Positions 26,965 to 29,427 of a DNA stretch of 32,177 nucleotides are shown piece by piece; within the stretch, counting starts at the first letter, position 1; each line of letters opens with the position of its first letter. Position numbers and translations under genes: made by a program. The notes beneath the pieces are model-generated. The model made no database searches, was not told the origin of the DNA, and saw only the letters and a list, made by a program, of their open reading frames with translations. This stretch comes from a bacterium (GTDB lineage Bacteria; Bacteroidota; Bacteroidia; CAILMK01; JACPUW01): positions 1 to 32,177 of the forward strand of contig WGNN01000043.1 of assembly GCA_016124515.1 (NCBI GenBank), written 5' to 3'.

Positions 26965-26997
26965 AAAGCCCGGAGCAGTAGTTTCGGGCTTTTTTTA
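26965..26997 (+). terminator. Rho-independent terminator of accA, overlapping the 3' end of the convergent gene
   Basis: AAAGCCCG-gagcagtagttt-CGGGCTTTTTTT; U-tract reaches the TAA (26995-26997) of the minus-strand transporter gene. Confidence 0.85.
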
Positions 26998-27750
26998 TTC
27001 AGAACGGTGTACTGAAGCGGCCATTTTCTCTGCCTCTTCTTTGCCCAGGTAGCGTTCTATAAAATAGTGCACCACATAGATGGCGGGCGTAGAAATAATG
27101 GCTACCACAAATTTGTACACATAGTTGACCACCCCAATGGCAAGTATGTAAATGGTGGGCAACTGACCGGCAAAGGCAATAAACAAAACCACATAACTAT
27201 CAATCAATTGCGAGACCAAGGTGGAACCTGTAGCACGCAGCCATATTCTTTTTTCGCCCGTGATGCTTCTGATTTTGGTAAACACATACACATCAACAAA
27301 CTGACTTACCAAAAAGGCCACGAGCGAACCGATAATGATGCGCAAACCCTGCCCGTAAACCGCATTGAAAGCCAGCGACATATCTTCCACACCCTGCTCC
27401 TGTTTCATCACCACCCAAAAATCGGCAGGTTCTACATTGATGGCGAGGTAAATCATTAAAAAACCGTAGGCGATAAGCCCGGCCGTGAGAAACGAAAGCA
27501 GCCTGATGCCTCGCTGTCCGTAGTATTCATTCAATATATCGGTAAAAACAAAAACTACCGGCCAAAGCAACACACCGGTGGTCATGGTAAAGCCCAGCCC
27601 GTCCTGCCCCAGAATTTTAAGGTTGAGCGGCTCAAAACCCAAGGTGCGCTCTACACTGAACAATTTGACACCCAAAAACTCCGCAAGTAGTGCATTGGCA
27701 ATAAAAAACCCGCCCAATACTATGAAAAGAATGTTCTGTTTATTTTTCAC
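26995..27750 (-). CDS. yhhQ: Queuosine precursor transporter (YhhQ/QueT-like)
   Basis: 251 aa; FFIANALLAEFLGVKLF...GVLLWPVVFVFTDILNEYYGQRG...ATGSTLVSQLIDSYVVLFIAF. Confidence 0.88.
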   Translation of the reverse strand: MKNKQNILFIVLGGFFIANALLAEFLGVKLFSVERTLGFEPLNLKILGQDGLGFTMTTGVLLWPVVFVFTDILNEYYGQRGIRLLSFLTAGLIAYGFLMIYLAINVEPADFWVVMKQEQGVEDMSLAFNAVYGQGLRIIIGSLVAFLVSQFVDVYVFTKIRSITGEKRIWLRATGSTLVSQLIDSYVVLFIAFAGQLPTIYILAIGVVNYVYKFVVAIISTPAIYVVHYFIERYLGKEEAEKMAASVHRSE

Positions 27751-27912
27751 ATGGTTTTACTTAAGGCAAATGTATAAATGAAAACCTAGTGATTTGGTTT
27801 AAAGTAACCATTGCTTATACCATTGGTGGTTCGCAAAAAACAAAAGTCATCGACAAAATTGTGAGGTGGATTTCGTCCCGTTATACTTTGGCAAATAATA
27901 AAAACAAAAGCG

Positions 27913-28039
27913 CTGATGAGAAATGGTCAGGAATGAGGCCGTCGAAGGGTTGAATGCCGGGAGTTTACTTGGGTAAATGACCAAATTCAACACGAGAAAA
28001 ACGAAATTATTGGACATTTAACGCAGACACTAAGTAAGT
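27913..28039. repeat. Copy 1 of tandem ~127-bp structured noncoding repeat
   Basis: CTGATGAGAAATGGTCAGGAATGAGG...CAGACACTAAGTAAGT; 123/127 identical by hand count to 28060-28186. Confidence 0.95.
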
Positions 28040-28057
28040 ACTTGAAGAAAATCAAGT
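28040..28057. repeat. 6-bp hairpin forming the spacer between the two repeats
   Basis: ACTTGA-agaaaa-TCAAGT; flanked by CAGAC (28024-28028) and GTCTG (28058-28062). Confidence 0.8.
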
Positions 28058-28059
28058 GT

Positions 28060-28186
28060 CTGATGAGAAATGGTCAAGAATGAGGCCTTCGAAGGGTTGA
28101 ATGCCGGGAGCTTACTTGGGTAAGTGACCAAATTCAACACGAGAAAAACGAAATTATTGGACATTTAACGCAGACACTAAGTAAGT
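28060..28186. repeat. Copy 2 of tandem ~127-bp structured noncoding repeat
   Basis: Offset 147 bp from copy 1; 4 substitutions, no indels; bounded by AGTGTCTG (28055-28062) / CAGACACT (28171-28178). Confidence 0.95.
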
Positions 28187-28194
28187 TTGAATAT

Positions 28195-29427
28195 ATGGAG
28201 CAGACCTACCTAACCATCTTCGTAACCATAGTAATTGTGGGCTTTGTGGCCGATCAGGTGCTCGACTACCTGAACAACTACAACCGGCCTGAGTTGGTGC
28301 CCAAAGAGCTTGAAGGCATTTATAATCAGGAAAAATATGCCCAATCGCTGCATTACCAACGCGACCAAAACCGCGTGGCCAATATCAGTTCATGGATCAG
28401 TTTTGTCATTATTTTGGGTTTGCTGCTCACCCAATCTTTTGGCACCATCAACCGCGATTTGGAAAATATGGGGCTGCACGGCAAATGGCTCAGCCTCGCT
28501 TTTTTTGGGCTTATCTTTCTTGCAGGCGATTTGCTATCGCTACCCCTTAGCTTGTACGCCACCTTTGTGGTTGAAGAAAAATATGGCTTTAACAAAACCA
28601 CGCTAAAAACCTTTTTTGCCGACAAATTGAAATCTTATGCGCTCACCGTATTCTTGGGCGGAGGCTTGCTTTATTTGTTGCTCAGCATCATCATATCGCT
28701 TGGCAATACCTTTTGGATTTGGGCTTGGTTGCTTATGGTGGCCGTTATGGTATTCATGAATTTTTTCTACACCACCCTATTTGTTCCGCTGTTCAACAAA
28801 CTTACCCCACTTGCCGATGGCGAGCTGAAAGAGGCCATTGTCGCCCTTTCGGAGAAACTCGATTTTCCGCTGAAAAAAATTATGGTGATGGACGCTTCCA
28901 AACGATCGTCAAAGTCCAACGCCTATTTTTCGGGCTTTGGCAAGCTCAAGTCAATCGTGTTGTTTGATACCTTGCTCGATAAACACAGCAACAAGGAATT
29001 GTTGGGGATTTTGGCACACGAAATAGGACATTACAAAAAACGACATATAGTAAGCAATTTGTTGATTGCGGTGGTGTTAAATGGCTTGACACTCTATGTT
29101 TTGTCGTGGTTTATTTTTAATGATGAACTGTCGAAAGCATTGGGAGCGCATCAATTGTATTACCACCTCAATATTATTGCCTTCGGTATTTTATTTGAGC
29201 CTATCAGTACGCTTACCGGTTTGTTGGGCAATGTATTATCGCGTAAACACGAATACGAGGCGGATGCGTTTGCAGTAAAGCACACCGACAAGGAAGCATT
29301 TAAAGATGCTCTAAAAACCCTTTCAACCGAAAATCTTAGCGACCTGCAGCCCCACCCGGCCTATGTTTTTGTACACTACTCCCACCCCACGGTTTTGCAG
29401 AGGTTAAAGGCGATTGATGATTTGTAG
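28195..29427 (+). CDS. M48 family metalloprotease (Ste24/CAAX prenyl protease type)
   Basis: 410 aa; HEIGHYKKRH zinc motif, SKRSSKSNAYFSGFGKLKSIVLFDTLL, EYEADAFAV, FVHYSHPTVLQRL. Confidence 0.93.
   Translation: MEQTYLTIFVTIVIVGFVADQVLDYLNNYNRPELVPKELEGIYNQEKYAQSLHYQRDQNRVANISSWISFVIILGLLLTQSFGTINRDLENMGLHGKWLSLAFFGLIFLAGDLLSLPLSLYATFVVEEKYGFNKTTLKTFFADKLKSYALTVFLGGGLLYLLLSIIISLGNTFWIWAWLLMVAVMVFMNFFYTTLFVPLFNKLTPLADGELKEAIVALSEKLDFPLKKIMVMDASKRSSKSNAYFSGFGKLKSIVLFDTLLDKHSNKELLGILAHEIGHYKKRHIVSNLLIAVVLNGLTLYVLSWFIFNDELSKALGAHQLYYHLNIIAFGILFEPISTLTGLLGNVLSRKHEYEADAFAVKHTDKEAFKDALKTLSTENLSDLQPHPAYVFVHYSHPTVLQRLKAIDDL

What the first reader, a model, noticed from the sequence alone, without database searches (positions are those of the whole stretch)
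27913..28186. Tandem ~127-bp noncoding repeats with a hairpin supported by compensatory differences
Two copies (27913-28039, 28060-28186; 147-bp period) differ at only 4 positions by hand count. Two of these are the outer pair of an apical hairpin: copy 1 TTTAC-TTGG-GTAAA (27964-27977), copy 2 CTTAC-TTGG-GTAAG (28111-28124), a T:A to C:G compensatory change. Around it, GTTGAAT pairs with ATTCAAC, and AAATGGTCAAGAAT pairs imperfectly with ATTATTGGACATTT; the third difference (G at 27930 / A at 28077) falls in that outer stem and would be a G-U vs A-U pair in RNA. So most of the divergence preserves the fold, which suggests selection on RNA or DNA secondary structure rather than a simple recent duplication.
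Basis: partly seen in the sequence, partly recalled or inferred. Interest (0 to 1): 0.75.

Follow-up and report, generated by a model that had tools for sequence, protein, structure and literature searches.

The report
Tandem copies of widespread hairpin transposon

Summary
In detail: two copies, four differences, one compensatory T:A to C:G pair. The explanation is larger than the locus. The pair is two head-to-tail copies, 22 nt apart, of a ~125-nt imperfect-palindrome element. This genome holds about 32 copies; the sampled same-genus and same-family genomes have none. Covariance models built from them find full-length relatives, scattered, in other Bacteroidota, in green sulfur bacteria, and (after a DNA-pattern scan) in Pseudomonas, Halomonas, Chromobacterium, Rhizobium, Listeria and others, up to 71 copies per genome. 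Pairing is kept while sequence changes almost everywhere (42 of 44 pairs with double changes). One strand folds better, and unpaired internal loops are conserved. Recent copies in other genomes have terminal inverted repeats and 4-bp target duplications, so this is a MITE-type mobile element. Element 3' ends sit on stop codons far more often than 5' ends (46 versus 9). Nothing in Rfam matches. Best reading: a MITE moved in trans by a DDE transposase (IS5-like inferred), tandemly duplicated after insertion, whose folded strand is under selection, probably as RNA. The function of the core and the mobilising enzyme were not identified.

The parts
27908..28032 (+). Element copy 1 (full hairpin; outer stem damaged: AAGCGCTG opposite CAGACACT)
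   Evidence: CM R1/R2 hit 27909-28032, 116.8 bits; alignment A1
28033..28054 (.). 22-nt spacer between the copies; its first 7 nt (AGTAAGT) equal the first 7 nt after copy 2
28055..28179 (+). Element copy 2 (full hairpin, outer stem AGTGTCTG/CAGACACT intact)
   Evidence: CM R1 hit 135.4 bits, E 3.8e-33; z -4.4
27964..27977 (+). Apical hairpin of copy 1, TTTAC-TTGG-GTAAA, directly after conserved GGAG and before conserved TGA (tandem G.A)
   Evidence: sequence; alignments A1, A5
28111..28124 (+). Apical hairpin of copy 2, CTTAC-TTGG-GTAAG (compensatory pair)
28082..28086 (+). Conserved internal-loop strand GAGGC of copy 2 (copy 1: 27935-27939)
   Evidence: near-invariant in A1 and A5
28147..28152 (+). 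Opposite internal-loop strand AACGAA of copy 2 (copy 1: 28000-28005)
   Evidence: near-invariant in A1 and A5
28180..28186 (+). AGTAAGT, host flank duplicated with the element (second occurrence of 28033-28039)
28195..29427 (+). Downstream gene, CAAX protease / M48 peptidase; not part of the element (context)
   Evidence: Pfam PF16491, PF01435
26995..27750 (-). Divergent upstream gene, Vut_1-type transporter; not part of the element (context)
   Evidence: Pfam PF02592

Best explanation
The repeats are two copies of a non-autonomous mobile element (MITE type, ~125 nt, no gene) inserted between the transporter and the M48 gene and then duplicated in tandem together with about 22 nt of local flank. 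SHOWN: the element is multi-copy, absent from close relatives, patchy across bacteria; recent copies elsewhere have terminal inverted repeats and 4-bp direct target duplications; one strand keeps a long hairpin with conserved internal loops by compensatory change; element 3' ends are over-represented at stop codons. INFERRED: movement is by a DDE transposase acting in trans on the ends, IS5-like because of the 4-bp targets and by analogy with MITEPsy1; tandem arrays arise after insertion by local duplication; the folded strand is kept because it acts as a structured RNA in transcripts of neighbouring genes (modulating mRNA ends, or being tolerated there), rather than because transposition needs it.
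For: Own genome: 34 BLAST places, 32 CM hits at E<=1e-4, none in same-genus G001 (100% complete) or same-family G002; the M48/transporter gap is 68 bp without the element in G002 versus 444 bp here. Spread: 13 of 293 class genomes, 33 of 398 phylum genomes, 12 of 14 named genomes re-searched. Mobility: in G149 nearly identical 123-bp copies have 4-bp duplications (TAAT, TTAT, TTAA, AGAA, GTAA, TTCA, CTAA, ATAC, TAAA, ATTG, ATAA); G171 copies have AATT/ATTT/AAAT; a Pseudomonas plasmid copy has CTAG. Structure; helix 37-39/106-108 was not in model R1 yet covaries (52 double-changed cells). Strand: sense folds better in 61 of 63, mean -44.9 versus -33.9 kcal/mol; z -6.5 versus -5.1. Core not needed to move: 105-bp and 60-bp deletion derivatives in G149 also carry target duplications. 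Stop codons: 46 versus 9 (binomial p 4e-7), with intact C-termini of PurL, SdhB, SerRS, AsnRS.
Against: No transposase with matching ends was found in G149 or G171, so the mobiliser is unknown. No expression data exist here; RNA versus single-stranded DNA cannot be told apart by sequence. The window pair itself lies upstream of a gene in sense orientation, not at a stop codon. Own-genome copies are too old to show clear target duplications.
Confidence: 0.55

Rival explanations
1. The folded strand is needed as single-stranded DNA during movement (hairpin-recognising enzyme, as for IS200/IS605, REP/RAYT or integron attC), and selection is on that.
For: Strand-specific fold; GGAG tetranucleotide at the foot of a hairpin resembles the REP motif; outer-stem sequences differ copy by copy in G178 and G120 while pairing holds, which a sequence-reading transposase would not explain.
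Against: Regular 4-bp target duplications, which IS200/IS605-type movement does not make. Deletion derivatives without the apical domain have moved. Y1 transposase (PF01797) does not track the element: one copy in G000, none in G158, which has elements; many in genomes without elements.
Confidence: 0.17
2. A plain palindromic MITE: arms are kept complementary by template switching (quasi-palindrome correction), with no selection on the fold.
For: Long imperfect palindromes are corrected this way; MITE transcripts in general fold (PMC10969869).
Against: Correction would also erase the non-complementary internal loops (GAGGC / AACGAA, tandem G.A beside the apical stem), yet these are the most conserved parts across phyla. 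It predicts no strand preference, but one strand is favoured. GU cells exceed AC cells in A5 (105 v 57 where GU is not the majority), though not clearly in A6 (40 v 36).
Confidence: 0.12
3. A tandem cis-regulatory RNA (riboswitch-like) of the M48 gene.
For: Two copies end 15 nt before the M48 start and are in sense orientation; tandem arrangement.
Against: Copies occur beside unrelated genes throughout the genome and on both sides of genes; M48 orthologues in relatives lack it; no Rfam match.
Confidence: 0.04
4. Domesticated element: insertions persist because they act as mRNA 3'-end or terminator-like structures for the gene whose stop codon they abut, as proposed for YPAL in Yersinia.
For: 46 of 146 elements have the 3' end within 6 nt of a stop codon versus 9 for the 5' end, in all groups; genes intact; many f40 copies sit next to terminator-like hairpins.
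Against: The gene's own mRNA would carry the less stable complementary strand. In the youngest sets the bias is weak (G149 6:2, G171b 2:1). YTAR-like targets coincide with stop codons, so position alone can be target choice.
Confidence: 0.12

Closest known systems
MITEPsy1 of Pseudomonas syringae (PMC3189936)
   Same: Short (100 nt), no gene, terminal inverted repeats, 4-nt target duplication (CTAG or YTAA), several copies per genome, active; authors suspected relatives in many bacteria
   Different: Its interior was not compared with the core found here; its ends (GGAAGGTCTGAAAAAGCC) differ from those seen in this family; no conserved strand-specific fold was reported
YPAL / RU-2 of Yersinia (described in PMC2229807)
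   Same: Palindromic mobile repeat of ~168 bp, target duplications, transcribed with upstream genes, long RNA hairpin; insertion next to stop codons is from memory of De Gregorio et al. 2006
   Different: YPAL duplications vary from 3 to 26 bp and targets lie at dyad symmetries; known only from enterobacteria; sequence not compared here
ERIC / RU-1 (PMC2229807)
   Same: 127-bp imperfect palindrome, intergenic, MITE-like, RNA hairpin affecting mRNA stability
   Different: TA ends and enterobacterial/Vibrio range; an E. coli search with a Pseudomonas copy of the present family found nothing
Ppu-9 stem-loop family of Pseudomonas putida (PMC2267715)
   Same: 124 bp, 57 copies, mostly intergenic; could be an earlier sighting of this family in one species
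   Different: Only length and counts are in the text; weak RNAz score; sequence not available to compare
REP / RAYT repeats (PMC3733652)
   Same: GGAG/GTAG-type tetranucleotide at the foot of a hairpin
   Different: 20-40 bp units; presence of Y1 transposases does not track this element

Membership tests
MITE (non-autonomous DDE-type element) | Short, multi-copy, no gene | tested here: met
   ~125 nt; 32 copies here, 71 in G171, 52 in Pseudomonas sediminis
MITE (non-autonomous DDE-type element) | Terminal inverted repeats | tested here: met
   GGGCATCTCTAAAA/..AGAGATGCCC in G149; AGTGTCTGTCCATA in G171; AGTGTCTG/CAGACACT here
MITE (non-autonomous DDE-type element) | Fixed-length target-site duplication | tested here: met
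   4 bp at recent copies in G149, G171, green sulfur-type genomes, one Pseudomonas plasmid; not recognisable at the old copies of this genome
MITE (non-autonomous DDE-type element) | Autonomous partner with the same ends | tested here: not met
   None found at unpaired ends in G149 and G171; partner could lie elsewhere or be lost, so this lowers 'derived from a known IS', not 'is a MITE'
IS5-family-mobilised element | 4-bp YTAR/CTAG targets | tested here: inconclusive
   CTAG at one Pseudomonas copy; G149 targets are 4 bp but not all YTAR
Rfam RNA family | Match above gathering score | tested here: not met
   No match in window or over elements in 38 relative loci
REP/RAYT | Y1 transposase co-occurrence | tested here: not met
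   G158 has 8 elements and no PF01797; many genomes with PF01797 lack the element
Integron attC site | RYYYAAC/GTTRRRY core ends next to cassette genes | tested here: not met
   Outer stems are AGTGTCTG/CAGACACT here and vary freely elsewhere; integrase not searched
MITEPsy1 / YPAL / ERIC / Ppu-9 sequence family | Homologous interior sequence | not tested
   Their sequences were not held in the texts read

The most novel reading that the evidence does not exclude
The conserved core is a functional RNA (or single-stranded DNA) bound by a conserved bacterial factor, so that a single mobile RNA family, unrecognised in Rfam, has spread through Bacteroidota, green sulfur bacteria, Proteobacteria and Listeria at tens of copies per genome, changing its terminal repeats to suit different transposases while keeping the core.
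Probability: 0.3. Interest if true: 0.85.

Novelty: new variant of a known kind. Interest (0 to 1): 0.6.

Why it matters
MITEs are usually thought of as genus-level debris of insertion sequences whose only working parts are the ends. Here the ends vary and the interior fold is what is shared between phyla, on one strand only. That asks a testable question: what does a selfish element without a gene need an RNA-like core for? The family is abundant enough to serve as a natural experiment on RNA structures at gene ends, and covariance models like those built here would let annotation pipelines mask or study it.

Tried and rejected
Hammerhead or other self-cleaving ribozyme (CTGATGAG...GAAA looked suggestive): the strands do not form the required stem II and no Rfam match appears even at E 10 apart from two chance lncRNA hits. 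Protein-coding repeat: frames are interrupted by stops and the change pattern follows pairing. REP/RAYT: PF01797 distribution does not fit. Integron attC: end motifs absent. Riboswitch of the M48 gene: copies occur beside unrelated genes. Search for a parent insertion sequence with the same ends in G149 and G171: only short elements (60, 105, 123, 147, ~198, 235, 418, 455 bp). Plasmid search with the window pair: nothing; E. coli search with a Pseudomonas copy: nothing. Literature search for the end or core strings: no relevant paper.

Full report
WHAT IS THERE. The two repeats exist as described, with four differences. Two of them form the compensatory U-A / C-G pair at the base of the apical hairpin; a third is A-U versus G-U in the outer stem. 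They lie between a divergent transporter gene (Vut_1, 26995-27750 minus) and a CAAX-type M48 protease gene (28195-29427 plus).

COPIES IN THIS GENOME. BLAST finds 34 places in the own genome at E<=1, most of them strong. A covariance model from 19 copies (R1) finds about 30 strong ones, and the broader R2 finds 32 at E<=1e-4. The same-genus genome (100% complete) and the same-family genome have none. In the same-family genome the two flanking genes are syntenic with only 68 bp between them, against 444 bp here, so the insertion is lineage-specific.

STRUCTURE. Consensus on the strand given: outer stem, then internal loop GAGGC / AACGAA, a short helix, a GAA / GA loop, a second long stem, and an apical hairpin UUUAC-UUNN-GUAAA framed by GGAG and UGA, which can form tandem G.A pairs. 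In 19 own copies 22 of 41 pairs show changes on both sides (shuffles 9.4; slid controls 5-9). In 42 relatives it is 39 of 41 pairs and 358 double-changed cells (85 in shuffles). In 63 mixed copies it is 42 of 44 and 624 (189). In 28 distinct copies, most from a 2-3 Mb genome family taken to be green sulfur bacteria, it is 38 of 44 and 181 (59). In 62 copies from mostly proteobacterial records it is 42 of 44 and 784 (271) (there the apical helix was fixed by the search pattern and says nothing). These alignments lean towards the structure because the model made them, but helix 37-39/106-108 was absent from R1 and still covaries. The modelled strand folds better than its complement in 61 of 63 copies.

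SPREAD. With R1, 13 of 293 genomes of the class have it, in 10 genera. With R2, 33 of 398 in the phylum. R2 finds 52 copies in Pseudomonas sediminis, 36, 31 and 30 in three other Pseudomonas, 25 in Rhizobium paknamense, 16 in Chromobacterium, and none at this threshold in the Brucella and Mesorhizobium genomes. Single weak hits outside Bacteroidota and Proteobacteria should be taken as leads. No Rfam family matches.

MOBILITY. In G149 nearly identical 123-bp copies with ends GGGCATCTCTAAAA...AGAGATGCCC are flanked by 4-bp direct repeats that differ from copy to copy. Derivatives of 105-106 bp (second stem broken) and 60 bp (apex lost) carry the same ends and also 4-bp repeats, so the core is not needed for movement there. 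G171 has 147-bp units with ends AGTGTCTGTCCATA and 4-bp AT repeats, and a second 235-bp element with the same ends. Green sulfur-type copies have ends GGGCACCTCT...AGAGGTGCCC and repeats such as TATA, ATAA, TCAA. A Pseudomonas tremae plasmid copy has CTAG. MITEPsy1 has the same duplication length and CTAG/YTAA targets and was assigned to IS5-type movement (PMC3189936). I could not find an autonomous element with these ends.

POSITION. Among 146 placed elements, 46 have their 3' end within 6 nt of (or overlapping) the stop of a gene running into it, against 9 for the 5' end; gene starts show no bias (11 v 10) (p 4e-7). ORFs were called crudely and copies within a genome are not fully independent, but every group shows the direction. 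Often the end of the element supplies the stop codon, and the genes tested are complete at the C-terminus (PurL, SdhB, SerRS, AsnRS). A YTAR-like target explains hitting stop codons; the orientation bias needs something more, most simply that one orientation is better tolerated or useful in the transcript.

TANDEM ARRAYS. This genome has about ten arrays of 2-5 copies. Ten of fifteen spacers are exactly 22 nt although their sequences differ by locus. In several arrays the first 3-7 nt of the spacer equal the flank after the last copy, as expected if element plus flank was duplicated together. Why 22 nt recurs is unexplained. Listeria rustica and L. grandensis have arrays too.

CONCLUSION. What the core does is open; I favour an RNA role (about 0.55 for the whole explanation), with ssDNA-level selection as the main rival.

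Noticed in passing
G000 arrays at C65, C133, C20, C51, C94, C131 and others (L006, L005, L007, L003, L008, L073): Spacers between tandem copies are exactly 22 nt in most arrays although their sequence is locus-specific; no mechanism known to me fixes this length.
   Followed up: partly
L133 and L138 (G158): Two copies end exactly at the 5' end of tRNA-Leu genes.
   Followed up: no
L154, L159, L157: Copies lie directly after cobalamin riboswitches (L154, L159) and directly before a SAM riboswitch (L157).
   Followed up: no
L218-L220 (G171): A second, unrelated 235-bp foldback element shares the terminal repeat TAGTGTCTGTCCATA with the hairpin element.
   Followed up: partly
L291:5480-6110 (Listeria rustica), L275:6426-6693 (Listeria grandensis): Tandem arrays of the element with spacers longer than in the window's genome.
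   Followed up: no
G178 and G120 copies (L120-L132): Outer stems differ in sequence from copy to copy within one genome yet stay paired, many next to terminator-like hairpins.
   Followed up: partly
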